Shown here: positions 22 to 34,217 of the stretch, one piece after another
Layout: each line of letters begins with the position of its first letter
Numbering within the stretch: position 1 is the stretch's first letter
Virus record (IMG/VR): IMGVR_UViG_3300037279_000097
Location: 1-38,886 of that record
Reading direction: 5' to 3' (one strand)
Length of the DNA: 38,886 nt
Source of the DNA: a virus
Position numbers and translations under genes: made by a program
Notes under the pieces: model-generated
Databases searched by the model: none
Told to the model about the DNA's origin: nothing
Seen by the model: the letters and a program-made list of their open reading frames with translations, nothing else

Positions 22-789
22 TTATAGTAATTTCAGCATGCCAAAACACACCGTGCCCTTGGTCAATTTAGCACACTCGACAACCTGCTCTTCGGGTTCC
101 GGTAGCCGCCAGGCGCAGAGGCCAGCAAAAATGCGGAGCTTCACGGTGAGATCCTCCTTGCAGCGGATGGACCACCCGGCCTTGATGGACTCCCCGGCCT
201 TGATGGACCGCCCGGCCTTGATAGACGACCCGGCCTCGATGGACAGCCCGGCCTTGATGGACTCCCCGGCCTTGATGGACCGCCCGGCCTTGATAGACGA
301 CCCGGCCTCGATGGACAGCCCGGCCTTGATGGACTCCCCGGCCTTGATGGACCGCCCGGCCTCGATGGACCACCCGGCCTCGATGGACAGCCCGGCCTCG
401 ATGGACTCCCCGGCCTTGATAGACGACCCGGCCTCGATGGACAGCCCGGCCTTGATGGACTCCCCGGCCTCGATGGACCGCCCGGCCTTGATGGACAGCC
501 CGGCCTCGATGGACTCCCCGACCTCGATGGACTCCCCGGCCTTGATGGACCGCCCGGCCTCGATGGACCACCCGGCCTCGATGGACAGCCCGGCCTCGAT
601 GGACTCCCCGGCCTTGATAGACGACCCGGCCTCGATGGACAGCCCACCAGCGGCGCGGACAAACCCAAGGATTTTTACCCATCCGAGTGATGCTTTGACT
701 TCGATGTGACCTTCAAACTCAAGGTCGCGTGAGCGAATATATTCGTTCCGCTCGTTTAGATCGGCTTTTGTGATCTTAAGAATCTCCAT
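22..789 (-). CDS. hexapeptide-repeat (beta-helix-like) protein
   Basis: Protein of 255 residues. Residues 51-206 are 26 tandem six-residue units of the form S-I-(E/K)-A-G-x, with only one deviation (SIEVGE). Such I-x-A-G hexads usually build a left-handed or bactofilin-like beta-helix, so the middle is probably a stiff rod. The N-terminal 50 residues and the C-terminal 49 residues are not repetitive. The ATG at 789 has AAAGGAG upstream and a TATAAT box at 821-826. An in-frame upstream start at 849 has no ribosome site. The 18-base DNA repeat keeps several other frames open, which are shadows. Function unknown; a structural or surface role is inference. Confidence 0.75.
   Translation of the reverse strand: MEILKITKADLNERNEYIRSRDLEFEGHIEVKASLGWVKILGFVRAAGGLSIEAGSSIKAGESIEAGLSIEAGWSIEAGRSIKAGESIEVGESIEAGLSIKAGRSIEAGESIKAGLSIEAGSSIKAGESIEAGLSIEAGWSIEAGRSIKAGESIKAGLSIEAGSSIKAGRSIKAGESIKAGLSIEAGSSIKAGRSIKAGESIKAGWSIRCKEDLTVKLRIFAGLCAWRLPEPEEQVVECAKLTKGTVCFGMLKLL
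172..639. repeat. tandem 18-base repeat, 26 units
   Basis: Twenty-six in-frame 18-base units inside the hexapeptide gene. They differ mainly in the codon for the sixth residue (S, E, L, W or R) and in Glu versus Lys. Larger blocks of several units also recur, for example around 175-230 and 250-290, which suggests growth by unequal exchange. Confidence 0.95.
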
Positions 790-7718: not shown

Positions 7719-8537
7719 TTATTCTACTAACAAATGCGTTTGCGCATCCAAAGAAGCTAAACGCCATGGGTGTCCCCATCCAGAGCTTAGCAATTCTTTC
7801 TCTTCACGCTCTTTAGCAAACCTCAATTTCTGCGCCGCGCTCATCTTAGAGCATTGCTGCGCAGTTCTTTTCTTTCCAGTATTAGCTGCTGCTATCTTAG
7901 CAGTAACTTCTGGAGCAGTTTTCATGCCTTTATGCGAGGCGCTCATTTTAGCTCGCACTTCCGGGCTTTTCAGAGCTTTTCTAATACCGGCTAAGTTCTT
8001 AGGACTAAGCGGCACGCCTTTCTTTTGCGCACTAAGTTTTAATCTGCGCTCTTCGCTCCTATTTGCACGAGCCAAGTTTTTCAGATGTTCAGGGGTAAAT
8101 GGAACGCCCTTACGCGCTATGCTCATAGCTTCTCGGGCAGCCTTAGTATGCCGGCGGCCATACATTCCATTATTTGCTCCGCTTAAATGCTCTGAGTGCT
8201 CTGCTGTAAATGGAACTCCTTTGAGTTTCTTACTTACAGCCTCTCGTGCGCTTTCGCTGCGCTTTTTACCAAAAGTTCCTTTAGCAGACATCGCTATACG
8301 ACTAAGACGCGGCCTGTACTTTCTCAATTCACTGCGTTCTTTATTACATGCGTCTTCTATAGCATCTATCGGCTTAGAAACCTTCATTGTAAAGGATTCT
8401 CCCCACATTTTCTCTTTCGCGCGCTTTCTACCCTGCGGATTTACGCTGCGCCCGATGTCTGCAAGAAGACCTTCAGCATCATATAAGTAATAAACGTAAT
8501 GCGGGCCTTCTCCACAAAGTCGCCTTTTGGTCGTCAT
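7719..8537 (-). CDS. GIY-YIG homing endonuclease with NUMOD3-like repeats
   Basis: Protein of 272 residues. The N-terminal nuclease domain shows Y-V-Y-Y-L-Y-D (GIY position) and A-D-I-G-R-S (YIG position), a following Arg, and E-D-A-C-N-K-E-R as the likely catalytic Glu helix. Residues 90-250 hold at least five NUMOD3-type DNA-binding units (AREAVSKKLKGVPFT, AREAMSIARKGVPFT, and others). Starts as ATGA on the stop of DNA polymerase. Such free-standing genes copy themselves into empty alleles by cutting DNA near their own site. Insertion between polymerase and nuclease genes is a typical location. Confidence 0.88.
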   Translation of the reverse strand: MTTKRRLCGEGPHYVYYLYDAEGLLADIGRSVNPQGRKRAKEKMWGESFTMKVSKPIDAIEDACNKERSELRKYRPRLSRIAMSAKGTFGKKRSESAREAVSKKLKGVPFTAEHSEHLSGANNGMYGRRHTKAAREAMSIARKGVPFTPEHLKNLARANRSEERRLKLSAQKKGVPLSPKNLAGIRKALKSPEVRAKMSASHKGMKTAPEVTAKIAAANTGKKRTAQQCSKMSAAQKLRFAKEREEKELLSSGWGHPWRLASLDAQTHLLVE

Positions 8538-10447
8538 TCTTTCCACGCTTTCAGCGTTCCCCAATTCGGCCCTGTTTCTCCATCTGACAATAAAGGCACA
8601 TCGCATGGCAAACTCGTCAGCATACATTCTCGTAGAATTTTCATTTCACCGCGCATATTGCTTTTAGCGCACGAAAAATCTACTTCGTCGTATACACTAA
8701 CCGTCATCCTCCCCTGGCGCTTCGGGTGTTCATCATACAAAATTAAAGTCTGCTTTGTTACATCAGCCCCCCCTCCTTGCGCGTAGTAATTCAGGGCCTT
8801 ATAAGAATAATCCAAATCTCTTCCGTATTTCTCAGAGTACGTAGAAGGCTCACAGTAATATAAACGCCCCCCAATAGTTCGTATCGGTTCCCCGCGCTTA
8901 AAAAGAGCTTTCATAGCATCGTCTAGCTCCTTCAAAGTCGGCAGCGCCGTATTTATAGCGTTCTGAATAACTTTTGCGACGGAGCGTTCACTCTCCCCTA
9001 ACTTCAAAGACTGCATGAGGCCGGAAAGACCCTGGCCATAAATTCTTCCGAAAACTACTGTCTTGGCTGTGTCCCTGTCAAAACTACCTCGTAAACCCGC
9101 CGCCTGCAGTGCCTTTTCCGTCTCAGCACGAACTAACTCATGTATATCATAGTTTGGATCGTTCAAAAATCCTTGCATCATAGGACCGTCTTCTGCATTA
9201 GCCACTAACCTAACTTCCTGCTGTGAAAAATCCCGTCTCCCCCATGCCTTCCCTTTATCTGGGAGGCAGTAGGTCCGTATGTAAGGCAGCTCGATTGTTC
9301 TCAAAAACGCAGGGTGCTTGTATCCGGCAGAAATATCTTTTTTGAATCGTTTGGGGATATTGAGAAAATTCGGCCGCGTGCATATAATACGCCCCGATCG
9401 TGCCCCGTTAGTATCATTTCCGCCTCCCTTTGGACTGCGAACCTGGCTCCAGTTAGGGTGAATAACACCATCGGACTTTGAAAGATCCAACCAAGGCTCC
9501 ACAAACATATTTATGCACGTACTCATTTTACTACGATATGATAATGCCTGAAACACTCTTTCATCCCTAAACTTATCAATCGTCAGGGACTTCTTACTGA
9601 CCGACAACTGCCCCTTGGGAGTACGTTCCAAATCCGTAACTGAGCCGGTAGATAGTAAGGATTCTGCTAACTGCTTATCACTATCTAAGTTAATGTCTCC
9701 TAGCCTACGCCTCAGCCACACATCAGCCTTCTCTACTCCCTGCTTCATCAACGGCAAATCACGCTCTAGCCCGGCTACATCCACGCGCATACCCTCGCGG
9801 GCGTTACGCAGCAAGATCGGCATGAGCTTTCTTTCTCGGTCATACGCCTCCCCCATTCCGGCGTCAATGACTTGCGGATAAAGATAATTGAACAGGCCCA
9901 GCGTTCGTGTTAAGTCACCTTTGTGGTAAGGTTTGACAACCTGATAAGGGCACCGCCAGATATAAGCGCCTGCCGTACTAGGCTTCCTAGCAGCTTCCGG
10001 TACGCTGGCAATAATCCACTCGTACATGCGGTCTTGCTCTTCAGGAGGAATACTCAATAGTAGCTCTGCCAGTGGCTTCAAAGCCAAAGTAGGAGAATGT
10101 GGGTTATTCAAAAACGCTAAGAACAACGTATCGTCATAGCGCTCCCACGGCAACAGCGGAATATCCCAATGAACTTCGGCCACGTCTTGATCAAACGCCC
10201 CGTTTTGGAAAAGCACTCGGTAGCGACTATCATGAGCTTTCTTATACTCTGCGCGCGCTTCTTTCTCTGCGCAGTTATTACCCGCAGCCTTGCTACCGTC
10301 ACCGTGGCCCCACGCCATCAACTTATACTCGCGCTGGTCAGGCCACTTAATAGCTAACGATACCGGCTTAGGCGGGTAGTTCGGACGCGGCTCAATAGCA
10401 TGAGTTTCAAAGTCTACCGTGATAACTTGGGGCGCTTTAGTGGGCAT
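8534..10447 (-). CDS. family A DNA polymerase with 3'-5' exonuclease
   Basis: Protein of 637 residues. Exonuclease motifs: D12-x-E14, N82-x3-D86 and Y174-x3-D178, so proofreading looks intact. Polymerase motif A is R-D406-F-S-Q-Q-E-V-R. Motif B is R458-x3-K462-x3-F466-G-x2-Y470-G, with Phe at the position that disfavours dideoxy substrates. Motif C is V-Y586-D587-E588, where most relatives have H-D-E. No intein or 5' nuclease domain. It is the replicative polymerase of the phage, following a 48-residue zinc protein and followed by the homing endonuclease. Confidence 0.95.
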   Translation of the reverse strand: MPTKAPQVITVDFETHAIEPRPNYPPKPVSLAIKWPDQREYKLMAWGHGDGSKAAGNNCAEKEARAEYKKAHDSRYRVLFQNGAFDQDVAEVHWDIPLLPWERYDDTLFLAFLNNPHSPTLALKPLAELLLSIPPEEQDRMYEWIIASVPEAARKPSTAGAYIWRCPYQVVKPYHKGDLTRTLGLFNYLYPQVIDAGMGEAYDRERKLMPILLRNAREGMRVDVAGLERDLPLMKQGVEKADVWLRRRLGDINLDSDKQLAESLLSTGSVTDLERTPKGQLSVSKKSLTIDKFRDERVFQALSYRSKMSTCINMFVEPWLDLSKSDGVIHPNWSQVRSPKGGGNDTNGARSGRIICTRPNFLNIPKRFKKDISAGYKHPAFLRTIELPYIRTYCLPDKGKAWGRRDFSQQEVRLVANAEDGPMMQGFLNDPNYDIHELVRAETEKALQAAGLRGSFDRDTAKTVVFGRIYGQGLSGLMQSLKLGESERSVAKVIQNAINTALPTLKELDDAMKALFKRGEPIRTIGGRLYYCEPSTYSEKYGRDLDYSYKALNYYAQGGGADVTKQTLILYDEHPKRQGRMTVSVYDEVDFSCAKSNMRGEMKILRECMLTSLPCDVPLLSDGETGPNWGTLKAWKE

Positions 10448-10849: not shown

Positions 10850-11635
10850 CTACTTTCTCCCTCTAGCCGCGAACTTCTGAGGCTTGTCCGCGCGCGCCGG
10901 TTTAGCCGCGCGCTCAATGGGCGGCCCATAAGGCTGTTGCAAAAACTCCTCCGCCTTGGGCACCCGTGAGTATAGCGCGTCCAGTACCTTAGGATCGCCG
11001 ATGGTTTCTACCGTCTTGAACTCCAAGCGGTACTGCGTCTTACTATCCGGCAAACTTGAAATCTCCGTAACCACCGCCCAGGGTGGACGCTCAGACTCGT
11101 CAGCCAAGGATCGCACGTACCCAGCCCATGCCTTGAGCTGCGTAGGACTGACGCGCGCCGTAGCCAGTTCCGCACTAGCCACGTCCTCTGCACTTTTAAC
11201 GTCATTAGCAAGGACAATGGCAAGGCGTTTCTTATTGCCGCACTCCTTGCCGCGACCCACAGCGGCCGATCCCCACTCATTCTTCTCACACTCAGCACAG
11301 GTAGTCTTGCTCTGTGGGTTCTGGCACTCTTCGTGCGGAGCCAGGTCAGCCATCAGCACGTTAAGCGCGTAGCACTCCGGCGGTTGCGGGTCATCAGGAT
11401 CGTAGGCATTGCCGCCATACCACGCGTTCTCGAAGCAGGACGCCAGGACAATGACCTCCACCTTGTTACCCGGCACTATGCCGCCCGCCACGGTGATGGT
11501 GCCGCCCGCGCCGAACTTCACGCTCTGCCCACCGCCGCCAATGCCCTTCTCCTGCTCTACGGCCTCTTTAGCGAGACCGGCGAATTTCTTTTCCCAAGGC
11601 ACGATTGCCGTGGGCTTTACCGCTTGCTTTGCCAT
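10850..11635 (-). CDS. Cys-rich replication-cassette protein, possible ssDNA-binding role
   Basis: Protein of 261 residues with a glycine-rich segment near 32-50, then a Cys-rich centre: C-F-E-N-A-W-Y-G-G, C-Y-A-L, C-Q-N-P, C-A-E-C-E-K-N-E-W-G-S and G-K-E-C-G-N, probably a zinc site. The C-terminal tail is basic and low-complexity. It sits where many siphophages encode a single-stranded DNA-binding protein next to DNA polymerase, so such a role is plausible but is inferred from position. GGAG before the ATG. Confidence 0.6.
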   Translation of the reverse strand: MAKQAVKPTAIVPWEKKFAGLAKEAVEQEKGIGGGGQSVKFGAGGTITVAGGIVPGNKVEVIVLASCFENAWYGGNAYDPDDPQPPECYALNVLMADLAPHEECQNPQSKTTCAECEKNEWGSAAVGRGKECGNKKRLAIVLANDVKSAEDVASAELATARVSPTQLKAWAGYVRSLADESERPPWAVVTEISSLPDSKTQYRLEFKTVETIGDPKVLDALYSRVPKAEEFLQQPYGPPIERAAKPARADKPQKFAARGRK

Positions 11636-12591: not shown

Positions 12592-13188
12592 TTAGTAAAT
12601 CGACGGTAAAATTTCTTCTGGGTCTTGCAGAGTGCCTACGTACTTCTCAGCCTCTGCCGTACAAATGCTCACGTAGACACACAGGATTTTATGGGCATCG
12701 CGTAAACTAACGCCCGCCTCCTCCGCTACCTGCTGAACATAATCCTCCCATTTCCGATTGGCCAGAACTACCACGGCGGCTTCCAGGTCGGCCACGCGGG
12801 ACTCCCGCTCAGCGTCCAACCACTGCGCCTCAAAACGCGTACCGGCTAACTTGTCTGTGGCCCTGTTATACTCTATGGCTGCGCCCAGCATATAACCTGG
12901 CACCTGCATTAACGAGATAGCCTGAGCCAAGTAGGGCTTAGGCATAGCTCCTAACACGGGCGCTAGATCCTTGCGCAGGTCTAGCAGGGTCACACCGTAC
13001 CTGTGATAAATCACATCGCGGTAGGCGGCAAGCTCTACATAGTTTCTGTTAGCTAGCCACCGCGCCGCCGCGTGGCATAGTTTCTCATTGTGAAGAGCGC
13101 GCTCAGAAGATAGCAAAAACAAAGACAACGCCGCAGCCACAAATCCTAGAAGTAACAGCAGGAACTTGTAGGCTAGAAGTTCTGTCAT
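12592..13188 (-). CDS. membrane-anchored helical protein
   Basis: Protein of 198 residues. One hydrophobic helix at about 7-27 (KFLLLLLGFVAAALSLFLL), followed by an all-helical region. TGATG overlap with the previous gene. Likely an inner-membrane protein with a soluble domain; no family recognised. Confidence 0.7.
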   Translation of the reverse strand: MTELLAYKFLLLLLGFVAAALSLFLLSSERALHNEKLCHAAARWLANRNYVELAAYRDVIYHRYGVTLLDLRKDLAPVLGAMPKPYLAQAISLMQVPGYMLGAAIEYNRATDKLAGTRFEAQWLDAERESRVADLEAAVVVLANRKWEDYVQQVAEEAGVSLRDAHKILCVYVSICTAEAEKYVGTLQDPEEILPSIY

Positions 13189-13700
13189 CACTTCCCTCCC
13201 AACTTCGTGCATGACACCCGTTTGGCATGGAACACTGAGACGAACTTCACTTGCTTTTTAGCGTCCCACCTTTCACGCACGGCGGCGGCATTCACTGAGT
13301 GCTGAAGCAATTCAAATTGGCGCGTCTTAACCGCGTAGGCATAAAATTTAGGCCAATCTTCGGGCTTGATAACCGGCACGGGCGTGTCCGTTATCTGCGT
13401 ACGACTATGGGAGCCTTGCAGGCCGCTGGCTTCGTCAGCGGCCAGGGTTTGAATGAAATGCTCTTCCACAGCCTTGACGGCTGGCTTGAGGGCATCGTCC
13501 AAGCCGCTAGCCAGGCCAGCTACCTGCTTAGTAGTCTGCCGCAGGTCATAGAGCAGGTCCGACACCGCGCCAGAAGGCAGCGCGGTAGGGTCTAGCGCGG
13601 CCAGGGCCTTAGTAAGTCGCCGCGCAGCTGGAGCCAGGGCCTTGGCGGCAGCCTTCAATTCTTTCGAGATGTCGACGTTGGGAACTTTTTTAGTGGGCAT
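13188..13700 (-). CDS. conserved-looking hypothetical phage protein
   Basis: Protein of 170 residues starting MPTKKVPNVDISKE (GAGG six bases ahead). An Ala-rich helical N-terminal half is followed by a C-terminal segment with Y-A-Y-A-V-K-T-x-x-F-E-L-L-Q, N-A-A-A-V-x-x-R-W and V-S-C-T-K-L at the end. That C-terminal pattern recurs in phage proteins of unknown function as I remember them. No enzymatic motif seen. Confidence 0.65.
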   Translation of the reverse strand: MPTKKVPNVDISKELKAAAKALAPAARRLTKALAALDPTALPSGAVSDLLYDLRQTTKQVAGLASGLDDALKPAVKAVEEHFIQTLAADEASGLQGSHSRTQITDTPVPVIKPEDWPKFYAYAVKTRQFELLQHSVNAAAVRERWDAKKQVKFVSVFHAKRVSCTKLGGK

Positions 13701-14049
13701 GACCGGCCTCATCGTGAGGCCTAATATAAGCGCCGCCACTCCTTACCACAGGATTACGAGACCGATTCACAGTGCTTGGTGCGAAGTCATAAGGAATCTG
13801 TATTCCACGCTGATGTGCCTGGACGTGCCCCTCGCGCCTCGCCACAATGTGCTCTACGGTAATCTCAGCCATATGCTGCGCCAGGGCCTTGGTAGACCAT
13901 GCGCCCCGTACCACGCTGCCGTCCGGCACTAGGGCCGCGTTAGTCAGGGCGATGCGCCATGCATGGTCCCTGAATTCTGCCGACAGGGTAATGCCCTGCC
14001 ACTGAGCCGTGCTGCAAAGCGGGCTCACCGATTTCCAAAGTAGAATCAT
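13690..14049 (-). CDS. hypothetical protein
   Basis: Protein of 119 residues from an ATG with AAGGAG upstream. It is the first gene after the tRNA-Leu and hairpin-element cluster and may be on the same transcript. No motif recognised; basic and His-rich C-terminus. Confidence 0.6.
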   Translation of the reverse strand: MILLWKSVSPLCSTAQWQGITLSAEFRDHAWRIALTNAALVPDGSVVRGAWSTKALAQHMAEITVEHIVARREGHVQAHQRGIQIPYDFAPSTVNRSRNPVVRSGGAYIRPHDEAGHAH

Positions 14050-14062
14050 TGTTACTCCTTAC

Positions 14063-14219
14063 GGTACTTCCATCACGGCTTCTTAGACAAAGGGCCGACT
14101 TGTATGGTTCTCTCACATTAAGGAGTCCAACAGCTCGGTCTTGACGCCCTTCTATAATGCCGCAAGTCGGATGGACGTCTAGCGTATCGCGCTTGCAGCG
14201 AAGCCGTGATGGAAATACC
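14063..14219 (-). ncRNA. long-stem element A, putative structured RNA
   Basis: Arms 14063-14082 and 14200-14219 pair over 20 positions, one of them a U-G wobble if transcribed on the minus strand. Inside, TAGAC pairs with GTCTA, and CCGACTTG (14094-14101) pairs with CAAGTCGG (14163-14170), so the interior is itself nested. No open reading frame fills it. Strand is inferred from the neighbouring tRNA and promoter; there is no direct evidence of expression. Confidence 0.5.
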
Positions 14220-14222
14220 GGG

Positions 14223-14330
14223 CGGTTATTTCGCAGTTACTGCAAATTAGTTTGTCGCTTACTACCCGTCTTAGACTAACCGGGTCCGTTTTCTAGACGC
14301 TCTCAACTTGCAGTAACTGTGAAATAACCG
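14223..14330 (-). ncRNA. long-stem element B, putative structured RNA
   Basis: Arms 14223-14245 and 14308-14330 pair over 23 positions with one exception, which is a G-U wobble on the plus strand and A-C on the minus. The 62-base interior contains ACCCG with CGGGT as an inner stem. Lies three bases from element A and eight bases from tRNA-Leu. Arm sequence is unrelated to those of elements A, C and D. Confidence 0.5.
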
Positions 14331-14338
14331 TCACAATT

Positions 14339-14425
14339 TGGTGCCCAGAGGGAGGCTCGAACTCCCACGACCCGTAAGTCGGCGGGTCTTAAATCCGCTG
14401 TGTCTACCAATTCCACCACCTGGGC
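14339..14425 (-). tRNA. tRNA-Leu, anticodon UAA
   Basis: Begins GCCCAGG and ends with an encoded CCA. The acceptor stem pairs, with one G-U. The D arm carries TTGGTAGAC. The anticodon loop TTTAAGA gives UAA. A long variable arm is present, and the T loop is GTTCGAGCC, as expected for a class II tRNA. The last pair of the anticodon stem is A-C. Reads UUA and UUG codons. It sits between elements B and C. Confidence 0.92.
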
Positions 14426-14435
14426 GTGTTTCTTA

Positions 14436-14581
14436 AGTGGTGCTTACGTAGGTGCTTCAGGTATCAGACTCGATTACGTTCCGCTTGAGAACTCAGACCC
14501 TCGAATCGACTCCCTGCGCTAGAAAGCAAGCTCCTTCTAACTCGGAGTCTTTCCCATTGAAGCACCTACGTAAGCACCGCT
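14436..14581 (-). ncRNA. long-stem element C, putative structured RNA
   Basis: A perfect 21 bp stem (14439-14459 with 14558-14578) extends to 24 positions with one wobble. Inside are two further stems, TCGATT with AATCGA and GACTCC with GGAGTC, giving a multi-branched fold. The minus-strand TATAAT box at 14593-14588 would start RNA within a base or two of the outer arm, so C is probably the 5' end of a C, tRNA-Leu, B, A transcript. Confidence 0.55.
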
Positions 14582-14585
14582 ACGT

Positions 14586-14597
14586 TTATTATAAACC
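14586..14597 (-). promoter_or_regulatory. TATAAT promoter box for the tRNA cluster
   Basis: GGTTTATAATAAACG on the minus strand, with TATAAT at 14593-14588, overlapping the stop codon of the upstream Cys-rich gene. Same extended form as the other early promoters. Predicted start falls at the base of element C. Confidence 0.6.
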
Positions 14598-14747
14598 CCG
14601 CCGCCGCGCCTTGGGTTTACTTTTCTCACACCCCGGCGTACAAACGGAGCAAACACAAACGGCATGCCCACAGTTAAGGCAGACTGCCTTGCTAGTAAGC
14701 ACCTTGCGGCACTTACACCACTTCTTCTCAGTTACTTTGGCGGCCAT
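14589..14747 (-). CDS. 52-residue Cys-rich zinc protein
   Basis: Begins MAAKVTEKKWCKCRK and contains eight Cys, in C-x-C, C-x-x-C-G-H and C-V-C-S-V-C groups, followed by a basic tail (KSKPKARRR). It could bind two zinc ions and nucleic acid. Overlaps the previous gene by 16 bases. Its TAATAA stop is part of the promoter box for the tRNA cluster. Confidence 0.65.
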   Translation of the reverse strand: MAAKVTEKKWCKCRKVLTSKAVCLNCGHAVCVCSVCTPGCEKSKPKARRRGL

Positions 14748-18017: not shown

Positions 18018-18135
18018 TGTAGAGCAGGCGGCGCGTGAAAGGCCGCTGAGTCATCGGAGCGACTGACCAGCTAGCAGAAAGAGCCGCTTTAGTCCGATCG
18101 TAATACCTCCAAGCGGACGCGCCGCCTGCTCTACA
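18018..18135 (-). ncRNA. long-stem element D, putative structured RNA
   Basis: A perfect 19 bp stem (18018-18036 with 18117-18135) encloses 80 bases. ATCGG with CCGAT and CCGCT with AGCGG form inner stems. The element fills the whole gap between two genes: one outer arm contains the stop codon of the upstream gene, and the other ends nine bases before the ribosome site of the next. Same design as A-C, 3.4 kb away, with unrelated arm sequence. Confidence 0.5.
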
Positions 18136-23600: not shown

Positions 23601-23685
23601 TTGTTTCCTCTAAAGGATTTACGCCGCGTAGAAAACATTCATCCATGGGATAACCGGCGTCTACATCATCTTCGTAGGCCGCCAC
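23590..23685 (-). CDS. possible 31-residue acidic peptide, GTG start
   Basis: V-A-A-Y-E-D-D-V-D-A-G-Y and onward to a stop 11 bases inside the DUF2130 gene. The acidic composition looks protein-like, unlike the overlapping tail of the repeat gene. AGGCAG lies upstream of the GTG. It may instead be the original C-terminus of the repeat gene after a frameshift. Confidence 0.35.
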   Translation of the reverse strand: MAAYEDDVDAGYPMDECFLRGVNPLEETNEQ

Positions 23686-24158
23686 GATAAACTGCCTGCC
23701 AAGTTCTGTAGCCGGTACCTGCTGCCCAGGTTAAGCCGAGTGACGCCTTGCGGGATGACGAGGCCCTCGGCGCTGGTCAAGCTTCTCAGGTCGAGCGTGG
23801 TGACGCCTTGCGGGATGACGAGGCCTTCGGCGCTGGTCAAGCTGCCCAGGTTAAGCCAAGTGACGCCTTGCGGGATGACGAGGCCTTCGGCGCTGGTCAA
23901 GCTGCTCAGGTAGAGCGTGGTGACGCCTTGCGGGATGACGAGGCCTTCGGCGCTGGTCAAGCTTCTCAGGTCGAGCGTGGTGACGCCTTGCGGGATGACG
24001 AGGCCTTCGGCGCTGGTCAAGTTGCTCAGGTAGAGCGTGGTGACGCCTTGCGGGATGACGAGGCCTTCGGCGCTGGTCAAGCTGCTCAGGTAGAGCCAGG
24101 TGACGCCTTGCGGGATGACGAGGCCTTCGGCGGATTTTACGTGGCTGGTAAAAGTCAT
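23661..24158 (-). CDS. leucine-rich-repeat-like protein, seven 20-residue units
   Basis: Protein of 165 residues. Residues 9-148 are seven near-identical units of S-A-E-G-L-V-I-P-Q-G-V-T-x-L-x-L-x-S-L-T. The L-x-L pattern and 20-residue period recall bacterial leucine-rich repeats, so a curved solenoid is likely. Only two or three positions per unit vary (W/T, Y/D/N, S/R/G), which could be a variable surface. The final 17 residues (RLQNLAGSLSWRPTKMM) look out of frame. AAAGG stands five bases before the ATG. Function unknown. Confidence 0.7.
   Translation of the reverse strand: MTFTSHVKSAEGLVIPQGVTWLYLSSLTSAEGLVIPQGVTTLYLSNLTSAEGLVIPQGVTTLDLRSLTSAEGLVIPQGVTTLYLSSLTSAEGLVIPQGVTWLNLGSLTSAEGLVIPQGVTTLDLRSLTSAEGLVIPQGVTRLNLGSRYRLQNLAGSLSWRPTKMM
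23715..24134. repeat. tandem 60-base repeat, seven units
   Basis: Seven 60-base units, nearly identical at the DNA level, even at third codon positions. This points to recent amplification or gene conversion. Two further units lie at about 24265-24380. Confidence 0.95.
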
Positions 24159-24223
24159 TTTCACCTTTCTAAAATCGTTTGGTTACTCCGGCTCACCCAC
24201 GGGAACGCGCCGGAAGGTGGTTA

Positions 24224-24382
24224 CTATCTCGCGGCCATCATTGCTTTGATTTTTGATGGCAGGTAGAGCCAGGTGACGCCTTGCGGGATGACGAGGCCTT
24301 CAGCGCCGGTCAAGCTGCTCAAGTCGAGCGTGGTGACGCCTTGCGGGATGACGAGGCCTTCGGCGCTGGTCAAGCTGCCCAT
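24224..24382 (-). pseudogene. two-unit fragment of the leucine-rich-repeat-like gene
   Basis: Open frame of 52 residues holding two units of the same 20-residue repeat, then a different tail (KIKAMMAAR). No ribosome site precedes the ATG at 24382. A different frame upstream (MPRRRVSISDDYYWLVDG) looks more protein-like and runs into the repeat out of frame. This looks like a copy broken by recombination; expression is uncertain. Confidence 0.5.
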
Positions 24383-24474
24383 CTACTAACCAATAATAAT
24401 CGTCGCTAATACTCACACGACGACGCGGCATTGGAACCCTGCACACAAGTTACTTTGGCGCTTAGCGGAATCAT

Positions 24475-28634: not shown

Positions 28635-29807
28635 TCAATCCTTAAACGGGTCGTGCGTCTGACCGCCGGCCATAGCTACGCCGACCGGCGTCAGGTTGTG
28701 GACGATCTTCACCGCGCCGCCCATAGCCGCAAGAACCTCCGGCAGGCGCTTGTAGCAGTCCGGCGACTCATCAGTAGCGCCACCGCGCAGCTCAATCCCG
28801 GAGCGTTCTACCCAGCCTCGCATCATGTCGCTAGTAACACGCCCAGCACGCTTGACCTCTCCGGTCTTGCGGTCAACTTTGCCCTTGGCCTCCATACGGC
28901 CCATCACGCGGCCCGCGCCGTGGACGGTTGAGTAAAGGGAGTAAGCTCCAAGAGGCGACTCGATGCCCTCAAGAATCACCGCGCCCTCGGCCATGGTTCC
29001 GCCCACGAAGCCGCGTTGTCCGGGCCAGGCCGGGGTAGACCCCTTACGCACTACGATAAGGCTCTCACCCCCATGGATTTCAGCCCATGCAAAGTTGTGG
29101 TGATTGTGAACTGACTCCACAATGGGAGCACCAAGAATCCTCGCCACACGATCACACACCCAATCACGACCAGCATAGGCGTACTCGCCACAAAAATTCA
29201 TAGCTCCTATGTAGTCTTGCCCGATCTGGTCGCCCAAGGACAGTACGCACGGCTCTACGTCCATGCCGTCCTTAGCCCCGGCTTTCTCCAGAAAATACTT
29301 TGCCGTCTTATGCCCAAATCCTCGAGAGCCAAAGTGAATCCCGATCCACACGCGGTCCTGCTCATCCGCAAACAAATCGACGTAATGATTCCCCGCGCCA
29401 ACGGTGCCCAACTGATTACGCGCTAAGTCCTTCAGCGGTGAGAACCACGGCTCAGTCCATGCAGAAGACTCAAAGCCATCCCACTCCGCGCGCTCATTAT
29501 TCTTTTGCCCGATGCCGAAGCTGATCGTGTGCCAAACGTCGTCCATAATGGTTTTGATGTTAGCGCGAAGTTCAGCGCCGGTTATATCGACGCGCACGGC
29601 CTTGTTGCCGCAGGCGATGTCGAATCCTACGCCGGTAGGGCTAACAGCATTCCGGTAAGCGACAACGCCGCCGATGGGCACGCCGTAGCCCTTATGATTG
29701 TCGGGCATGAGTGCCGTTTTATATGCCGTCTTCGCACAGGTTTTAATTTGAGCCAAAGCGCCGGGATCGGCCGTTCCGAACACCGGAATTCCGTCAATGA
29801 TTTCCAT
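28635..29807 (-). CDS. rtcB: RtcB-type RNA ligase
   Basis: Protein of 390 residues, near the usual length. L-M-P-D-N-H-K-G-Y-G-V-P-I-G-G (33-47), G-F-D63-I-A-C67-G, G-A-G-N-H141-Y, I-H158-F-G-S-R-G, H-N-H-H-N-F, R-K-G-S-T-P-A and H296-G-A-G-R-x-M are the metal-binding and GMP-accepting residues, all present. RtcB joins RNA 3'-phosphate (or cyclic phosphate) ends to 5'-OH ends, as produced by anticodon nucleases and small ribozymes. Own promoter (TATAAT at 29838-29833). In phage it probably repairs cleaved tRNA; other substrates are possible. Confidence 0.95.
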   Translation of the reverse strand: MEIIDGIPVFGTADPGALAQIKTCAKTAYKTALMPDNHKGYGVPIGGVVAYRNAVSPTGVGFDIACGNKAVRVDITGAELRANIKTIMDDVWHTISFGIGQKNNERAEWDGFESSAWTEPWFSPLKDLARNQLGTVGAGNHYVDLFADEQDRVWIGIHFGSRGFGHKTAKYFLEKAGAKDGMDVEPCVLSLGDQIGQDYIGAMNFCGEYAYAGRDWVCDRVARILGAPIVESVHNHHNFAWAEIHGGESLIVVRKGSTPAWPGQRGFVGGTMAEGAVILEGIESPLGAYSLYSTVHGAGRVMGRMEAKGKVDRKTGEVKRAGRVTSDMMRGWVERSGIELRGGATDESPDCYKRLPEVLAAMGGAVKIVHNLTPVGVAMAGGQTHDPFKD

Positions 29808-33588: not shown

Positions 33589-33627
33589 CAAACCTCCAGC
33601 GGCGGTCCGCTGCGAAAATATAAAGTG

Positions 33628-33645
33628 TACGTTTATTATAACCCC
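33628..33645 (-). promoter_or_regulatory. TATAAT promoter box of the early operon
   Basis: GGGGTTATAATAAACG on the minus strand, with TATAAT at 33640-33635, about 45 bases ahead of the first early gene. A CAGCGG/CCGCTG hairpin (near 33599-33612) stands between it and GGAGG. Confidence 0.6.
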
Positions 33646-33714
33646 ATGGGCGGTTACCGCGCTTCTCCGGGCGTGCGGTGGCAAATAACTTCTAAGTGGT
33701 GCGCGGCTCAAAAC

Positions 33715-34010
33715 TGATCTAAGAATAAATATATCAACGACTTGCGACGTATTTTTGAATAACTTTTAACTTTTCCAAGTTGGCGATAAAATTGCGCCTA
33801 GAGGCGACGATAAAGTTAAATTCATTATTATTTATAATACGTTTTTATTTTATTGCCTCATAAGGCATTATTTATATAGTAGTTCAATAGTTAATAGTTA
33901 TTAAAAGACTTATATATATAAAAATAAAGGACTTAAATACAACTGGGATTGAACTACTATATGTATAAAGACAACTTACAACCTAAAGAATGAGGAACTT
34001 AGGGCCGTTT
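33715..34010. other. AT-rich intergenic control region, candidate origin
   Basis: No gene. Far more AT-rich than the rest of the window. Holds TTGGCGATAAAATT and GAGGCGACGATAAAGTT as imperfect direct repeats, small hairpins (CGCC/GGCG; TGCCT/AGGCA), long A/T runs and a 15 bp inverted repeat. It lies between divergent early and late genes, next to the primase-helicase end of the early operon, where many phages have their origin. Confidence 0.55.
33874..33962. repeat. 15 bp perfect inverted repeat
   Basis: ATATAGTAGTTCAAT (33874-33888) and its complement (33948-33962) flank 59 bases of almost pure A/T. Could form a cruciform or bind a replication or regulatory protein on each arm. Confidence 0.7.
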
Positions 34011-34051
34011 ACGCCGCCGACGCCAATTATCTTCCCCGTAGGCCGGTTCGG

Positions 34052-34217
34052 CGGGTTATAATAAAACCTGCGGTGGTGGTTCTGAGCAATTGCAAGAAAG
34101 CGGCGCTGGGTTGGGAAGACAAGTGCTGCGGAAGGTCCCAGAGAGCAACCTGGGCGTTCACCTCGGAACGAGATCTCGGGGGCGCTTCCCGGACACGTAG
34201 GGCGGAGCCGTTGCCGA
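34052..34217 (+). promoter_or_regulatory. late-side promoter and folded leader
   Basis: GGGTTATAATAAAAC with TATAAT at 34057-34062 is the plus-strand counterpart of the early promoters. About 150 bases of GC-rich leader follow before the gene at 34218, with CCCAG/CTGGG and CGAGATCTCG as local folds. No open frame was recognised in it. Confidence 0.5.

What the first reader, a model, noticed from the sequence alone, without database searches (positions are those of the whole stretch)
14063..14581. Cluster of long-stem RNA-like elements around a phage tRNA-Leu
Elements C, B and A around tRNA-Leu each consist of a 20 to 23 bp near-perfect inverted repeat enclosing 62 to 117 bases that contain further nested stems. 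Arm sequences differ from element to element, so this is not one transposon's terminal repeat. A TATAAT box places the probable transcript start at the outer base of element C. The layout suggests three folded RNAs on one transcript with a tRNA, with closing stems that RNase III-type enzymes could process. I do not recognise the elements as a described RNA family. The imperfect outer pairs are wobbles on the minus strand for A but on the plus strand for B and C, so the transcribed strand is not settled.
Basis: partly seen in the sequence, partly recalled or inferred. Interest (0 to 1): 0.85.

Follow-up and report, generated by a model that had tools for sequence, protein, structure and literature searches.

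The report
Phage small RNAs flanking a tRNA
An uncultivated phage makes, together with one tRNA, three small folded RNAs each zipped shut by a helix of about 21 base pairs; two of them recur with compensating base changes in related phages, so they are real, previously undescribed RNA families whose function is unknown.

Summary
Elements at 14062-14220 (A), 14223-14330 (B) and 14436-14581 (C) have closing stems of 20-23 bp around 117, 62 and 98 nt; 20 shuffles of the window gave no comparable stem. They are packed promoter-C-tRNA-Leu(UAA)-B-A-ribosome site-ORF on the minus strand. Neither A, B nor C matches Rfam, even at E 5. Relatives found through the DNA polymerase settle two open points. 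Family A recurs in three other phages, always directly upstream of the same gene, with compensatory changes in 11 of 23 tested pairs. Family C recurs in two others with a conserved three-way junction (AUGGGAA...UGAUACC) and 9 of 30 pairs compensated. G-U pairs fix the transcribed strand as minus. One relative (G009) repeats the C-tRNA-A order; another (G001) has the flanking genes with no cassette. B has no relative. A fourth stem, D (18018-18135), belongs to a group of six that all carry CCUUUC. Best reading: small structured RNAs cut from a tRNA transcript (RNase P, probably RNase III), acting in trans; processing and function are inferred. The nearest known kinds are T4 rnaC/rnaD and GOLLD/ROOL; none matches in sequence or structure.

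The parts
14588..14593 (-). TATAAT -10-like box of the cassette; predicted +1 about 14581
   Evidence: GTTTATAATRA motif; a TATAAT box also precedes the C element of the relative L088
14436..14581 (-). Element C: 21-24 bp closing stem, three-way junction (AU bulge, GG/CC, GAAA..UGAUA); family C
   Evidence: relatives G009 11346-11539 and L088 6480-6624
14339..14425 (-). tRNA-Leu (UAA) with encoded CCA
   Evidence: ARAGORN and Rfam RF00005; sequence
14223..14330 (-). Element B: 23-bp closing stem (22 paired), 62-nt core; orphan
   Evidence: no relative found among the phages examined
14062..14220 (-). Element A: 21-bp closing stem (20 Watson-Crick pairs plus one G-U on the minus strand), hairpin P2 with motif GCGCGAU..UCCGAC, branched arm P3; family A
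   Evidence: three relatives, by covariance model, covariation
14055..14061 (-). Ribosome-binding site TAAGGAG abutting the end of A
   Evidence: sequence
13690..14049 (-). Gene gA (119 aa, MILLWKSV...), immediately downstream of every family-A RNA found
   Evidence: no Pfam, PHROG or PADLOC match; predicted beta-sheet plus helix
18018..18135 (-). Element D: perfect 19-bp closing stem, 80-nt core with unpaired CCUUUC; between ORFs 18463-18131 and 18010-17726
   Evidence: relative L088 2513-2629
33868..33968 (.). Element E: AT-rich 15-21 bp inverted repeat in the divergent promoter region; strand and role open, may not belong to the class

Best explanation
The cassette is a phage stable-RNA operon. 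Shown: a minus-strand promoter-like box is followed within 540 nt by C, tRNA-Leu, B and A, separated by only 10, 8 and 2 nt, and then the ribosome site of gene gA; A and C are conserved RNA families whose helices are kept by compensatory changes while the sequence drifts. Inferred: the transcript starts at the base of C. RNase P and the tRNA 3'-end enzymes release the tRNA. The 20-23 bp closing stems, two helical turns long, are kept in length but not in outer sequence; they hold each core shut and are cut by a dsRNA enzyme such as RNase III, releasing three small RNAs of about 100-160 nt and leaving gA as a separate mRNA. The cores, with invariant junction and loop nucleotides, then act in trans on a host or phage partner.
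For: Stems and folds beyond chance. The full transcript folds as separate modules with the tRNA intact. Family A: the model built from window + L088 finds G009 e2 (58.1 bits, E 3.5e-13) and L087 (39.9 bits, E 4.8e-8) in 1.77 Mb; in the four-member alignment 94.4% of cells pair, 11 of 23 pairs have two-sided changes, 0 of 500 shuffles reach either value, and slid versions pair 28-46%. Family C: 96.7% paired, 9 of 30 pairs two-sided, slid versions 33-43%; CAATGGGAAA...CTGATACCTG is shared with G009 e1 at the same structural positions. The A closing stem is paired at 18-20 of 20 positions in all four members, with 8 positions changed on both sides. The order C - tRNA - A upstream of gA recurs in G009 with a different tRNA (Met). 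L088 has promoter - C - A - gA without a tRNA, and G001 has the two flanking genes with no cassette, so the RNAs are a separable module and not part of a gene.
Against: No transcription or processing data. B has no relative. Family A always sits directly before gA (4 of 4), which a cis-acting leader would also give. The RtcB ligase gene of the window is not found in G005, G006, G009 and G010, so ligation or circularisation is not a shared step. Families C and A rest on 3 and 4 sequences; the model alignment of A leans towards its own structure.
Confidence: 0.5

Rival explanations
1. Cis-acting leader: A (and D) are 5'-UTR structures controlling the gene directly downstream, either by sensing a ligand or because the gA protein binds A (autoregulation); C and the tRNA are merely carried on the same transcript.
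For: All four A elements lie directly upstream of gA with its ribosome site following. D is likewise followed by a ribosome site and a gene whose homologue follows the L088 copy.
Against: gA occurs without a recognised A in four other lineages (G001, L089/L090, L044, L013). The A stem does not overlap the ribosome site and the predicted fold keeps A as a closed module. C is separated from gA by a tRNA in two phages. The predicted gA fold gives no RNA-binding match, though the fold search was weak.
Confidence: 0.25
2. Processive antitermination RNA: C (and D), starting at +1, act on the transcribing polymerase, in the manner of HK022 put or EAR RNA, so that the long untranslated tRNA operon is not cut short by Rho.
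For: C starts at the predicted +1 in the window and within a few nucleotides of it in L088; D follows an A+T-rich promoter-like stretch.
Against: G009 e1 has no recognisable promoter box directly before it. A and B are not at a transcript start. No Rfam match, including EAR, at E 5.
Confidence: 0.12
3. RNA decoys: the stems or cores titrate a host RNA-targeting defence or a host RNA-binding protein during infection.
For: Several unrelated cores share a rigid two-turn closing helix, and copies vary from phage to phage as expected of counter-defence genes.
Against: No direct evidence; the neighbouring proteins tested show no convincing defence-family match.
Confidence: 0.08
4. Ends of mobile elements or terminators without an RNA function.
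For: Long inverted repeats in intergenic DNA, and a relative without the cassette (G001).
Against: Arms differ between elements; internal helices and junction letters are conserved with compensation; no transposase recognised among the window ORFs scanned; no T run follows the stems.
Confidence: 0.03

Closest known systems
T4 rnaC and rnaD (species 1 and 2 RNA)
   Same: Two small stable phage RNAs (139 and 119 nt) directly downstream of a tRNA on the same strand; roles unknown (PMC3014915; seen as late RNAs in PMC9697503). Same size and layout as B and A.
   Different: No long closing stem; rnaC carries a tRNA-like T arm; models R1 and R2 do not match the T4 region.
GOLLD and ROOL RNAs
   Same: Structured phage RNAs of unknown function often encoded near tRNA islands (PMC12286853).
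   Different: Far larger and with their own Rfam models, which do not match here.
Permuted (two-piece) tmRNA, RF04321
   Same: Two relatives of this phage encode one; in G005 its intervening segment is also closed by an 18-of-19 bp stem around 116 nt.
   Different: A, B and C have no tRNA-like or tag-coding part recognised and do not match the model.
RNase III processing stalks of rRNA precursors and T7 early mRNA (own knowledge)
   Same: Closing helices of about two turns around or between RNA units on one transcript.
   Different: No cleavage shown; the cores are new RNAs, not rRNA or mRNA.
HK022 put / EAR antitermination RNAs (own knowledge)
   Same: Structured RNA at the very start of a transcript (C, perhaps D).
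   Different: No Rfam match to EAR; A and B are not at a transcript start.

Membership tests
GOLLD / ROOL | Match to the family's covariance model | tested here: not met
   Only tRNA matches in the window and at E up to 5 in 14030-14610
GOLLD / ROOL | Encoded by a phage next to tRNA genes | tested here: met
   tRNA-Leu between C and B; location described in PMC12286853
T4 rnaC / rnaD | Small RNA genes immediately next to a phage tRNA, same strand | tested here: met
T4 rnaC / rnaD | Shared sequence and structure | tested here: not met
   R1 and R2 give no match in the T4 region; T4 RNAs lack long closing stems
T4 rnaC / rnaD | Stable RNA seen in infected cells | not testable with these tools
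   No RNA data; uncultivated phage
tmRNA (standard or permuted) | tRNA-like domain and Rfam match | tested here: not met
RNase III-processed transcript | Double-stranded stem of about 20 bp or more around the unit | tested here: met
   C 21-24, B 22 of 23, A 20 of 21 plus a G-U on the minus strand
RNase III-processed transcript | Cleavage within the stem | not testable with these tools
   Needs expression with and without rnc
Transposon or MITE ends | Same terminal repeat in several copies | tested here: not met
   Arms of A, B, C and D unrelated; covariation inside the elements
EAR / put antitermination RNA | Match to a known model | tested here: not met
   No Rfam match at E up to 5; put itself not tested
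Retron msr-msd RNA | Linked reverse transcriptase gene | tested here: inconclusive
   None among the larger window ORFs scanned; small ORFs were not all scanned

The most novel reading that the evidence does not exclude
This phage clade carries an interchangeable set of small RNAs built on one plan: a two-turn closing helix around family-specific cores (A, B, C, D and others), moved in and out of fixed intergenic slots. The D group exposes CCUUUC, complementary to GAAAGG Shine-Dalgarno sequences that sit in hairpin loops behind several of the phage's own promoters, and acts in trans on phage translation by loop pairing, while A and C act on other targets.
Probability: 0.2. Interest if true: 0.8.

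Novelty: new variant of a known kind. Interest (0 to 1): 0.62.

Why it matters
T4 rnaC and rnaD still have no known role, and GOLLD and ROOL remain unexplained. Here are new phage RNA families at the same kind of place, small enough to probe by mutation, with covarying helices, invariant junction letters, natural relatives with and without the cassette and with and without the tRNA, and a linked gene. That makes the question of what the extra RNAs in phage tRNA operons do testable on 100-160 nt molecules.

Tried and rejected
Rfam at gathering level and at E 5: only the tRNAs. BLASTN of the region against 50,697 phage records: only matches at the tRNA-Leu. Pattern scans of IMG/VR for the A hairpin and for the C junction (15 hits, none with a closing stem), and for the inner A stem in IMG/VR and 84,980 genomes: only the known members score with model R2, apart from one bacterial stretch at E 0.09 judged chance. 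R1 does not find G009 e1: its inserts are longer, so e1 is assigned to family C by junction letters and position. Models R1 and R2 over 42 whole contigs of relatives found nothing new. RtcB-dependent circularisation: RtcB is not found in most relatives tested. gA structure: mean pLDDT 68.7, no convincing fold match. D acting on Shine-Dalgarno loops: leader hairpins with GAAAGG exist in several phages but are few, are also present in one without a D element, and GAAAGG is just one of several common SD forms; kept as an idea only. Three cultured phages with 38-40% identical polymerase have no stems of this strength. The rate in the bacterial loci is no fair control, because these were fetched with a palindromic pattern.

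Full report
What is there. The window is a 38,886-base linear IMG/VR record of a tailed phage: helicase, exonuclease, DNA polymerase I, DNA ligase, primase, terminase and an RtcB-type ligase were recognised. Most genes of the left part run on the minus strand. Between a 52-aa cysteine-rich ORF (14747-14589) and the 119-aa ORF gA (14049-13690), 540 bases hold three strong inverted repeats and a tRNA-Leu(UAA). Read on the minus strand the order is TATAAT box (14593-14588), C (14581-14436), 10 nt, tRNA (14425-14339), 8 nt, B (14330-14223), 2 nt, A (14220-14062), TAAGGAG, ATG of gA.

Beyond chance. These are the three strongest inverted repeats of the window. Twenty dinucleotide shuffles of the whole window gave no stem of score 14 or more; the window has five. 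Each element folds far better than its own shuffles. In the whole transcript all three closing stems and the tRNA acceptor form together.

Relatives. DNA-polymerase searches of IMG/VR gave 6, then 16, then 80 related loci. A scan of these for long stems found 28 against 2 in shuffles. In relative G009 (IMGVR_UViG_3300028666_000026, polymerase 64% identical) the same slot upstream of gA holds a long-stem element (e1), a tRNA-Met, a small ORF and a second long-stem element (e2). Element e2 is homologous to A. L088 (IMGVR_UViG_3300037166_000041) has a TATAAT box, a C element and an A element in direct succession before gA, with no tRNA. A covariance model of A built from the window and L088 finds e2 (E 3.5e-13) and a fourth member in L087 (E 4.8e-8), again directly before gA. 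G001 has the cysteine-rich ORF and gA nearly touching, without any cassette.

Structure and covariation. Family A: P1 of about 21 bp whose inner ten pairs are almost invariant and whose outer pairs change on both sides (18-20 of 20 paired in all four); hairpin P2, written GCUGCAAG/CUUGCGGC, GUUGUCGG/CCGACGAC, GCUCC/GGAGC and GCGACCAG/CUGGUCGC in the four phages; and a branched arm P3 (shorter in L087). Over P1 and P2, 94.4% of cells pair and 11 of 23 pairs are compensated; no shuffle of 500 reaches this and slid controls pair at 28-46%. Family C: P1, a bulged AU, two invariant G-C pairs, then GAA(A/G), two hairpins P2 and P3, and (C)UGAUA. Window and L088 pair at 96.7%, with 9 two-sided changes in 30 pairs. 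G009 e1 keeps CAATGGGAAA and CTGATACCTG at the same places with longer hairpins. B has no relative and rests on its own fold.

A fourth stem. D (18018-18135) has a perfect 19-bp closing stem. It resembles L088 2513-2629, and shares with it and with elements in G005, L104, L089 and G010 one hexamer, CCUUUC, which is unpaired with high probability in five of the six and mostly unpaired in L104; no shuffle of 300 gave a hexamer common to all six. Its complement GAAAGG is a Shine-Dalgarno form found in hairpin loops behind several TATAAT boxes of these phages. This suggests pairing in trans, but GAAAGG is only one of several common SD forms and a phage without a D element also has such a leader.

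How it probably works. Shown: conserved structure, strand, order and linkage. Inferred: transcription from the TATAAT box, release of the tRNA by RNase P, cutting of the two-turn closing stems by an RNase III-type enzyme, and action of the released RNAs in trans. The strongest rival is a cis role of A on gA, since all four A elements abut gA; against it, gA exists without a recognised A in four other lineages. Antitermination by C is a further rival. RtcB-dependent circularisation is unlikely, as RtcB is not found in most relatives tested. In G009 the outer 3' arm of e1 includes the 5' acceptor strand of tRNA-Met, so the full stem and the tRNA cannot both form there, and the predicted fold of the pair favours the stem; tRNA processing there may compete with stem formation.

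What is known. T4 rnaC and rnaD are the nearest in size and place, GOLLD and ROOL the nearest as structured phage RNAs near tRNAs. The T4 RNAs have no long closing stem and are not matched by R1 or R2; GOLLD and ROOL models do not match the window. Two relatives carry permuted tmRNA (RF04321). I therefore file the elements as new RNA families at a known kind of place, with an unusual shared plan, and not as members of any described family.

Limits. Membership is small (A 4, C 3), all from uncultivated phages; the metagenome collection could not be scanned; the A alignment was fitted to its model. In one search the long stems (score 15 or more) occur at 3.0 per 100 kb in the clade, 0.8 in distant relatives, and 0 in 311 kb of cultured relatives and unrelated viral contigs; the bacterial loci of that call are not a fair control.

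Noticed in passing
G005 (L024) 12925-13425 minus; G009 (L051) 234-676 plus: Two relatives of the window phage encode permuted tmRNA (Rfam RF04321); in G005 the intervening segment is closed by an 18-of-19 bp stem around 116 nt.
   Followed up: partly
L149 618-730: A stem of 21 bp or more closes a core with a tRNA-like T arm (GCCGGGTTCGACTCCCGG) that ARAGORN does not call: a tRNA-like RNA with a very long acceptor stem.
   Followed up: no
window 826(-), 3047(-), 30166(-); G005 62012(+); G009 101974(-); L088 17210(+), 20725(+): Recurrent leader: TATAAT box, then a short hairpin with (A)GAAAGG in its loop, then ATG; the Shine-Dalgarno sequence is presented in the loop.
   Followed up: partly
L043 6538-6557 (G009 11346-11365): The 3' arm of element e1 contains the 5' acceptor strand of tRNA-Met, so e1 stem and tRNA acceptor exclude each other.
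   Followed up: partly
window 33600-34070: Divergent promoter region between the primase-side and terminase-side genes with an AT-rich inverted repeat (element E); cultured relatives PW916 and AXL3 have a 13-bp GC-rich stem at the matching place.
   Followed up: no
window 58-741: At least 26 tandem copies of an 18-base unit inside an open reading frame at the window's left end.
   Followed up: no
window 23661-24433: 60-base direct repeats, about nine copies, overlapping ORF 24164-23661.
   Followed up: no
window 28635-29807: RtcB-type RNA ligase gene, 60% identical in G001, not found in the other relatives tested.
   Followed up: partly
window 7719-8627: Homing-endonuclease-like ORF between the exonuclease and DNA polymerase genes.
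   Followed up: no
L139 7486-7685 and 6588-6709; L145 1815-1930; L103 16390-16491: More distant relatives (DNA polymerase roughly 36-42% identical) also carry intergenic long-stem elements of unrelated sequence.
   Followed up: no
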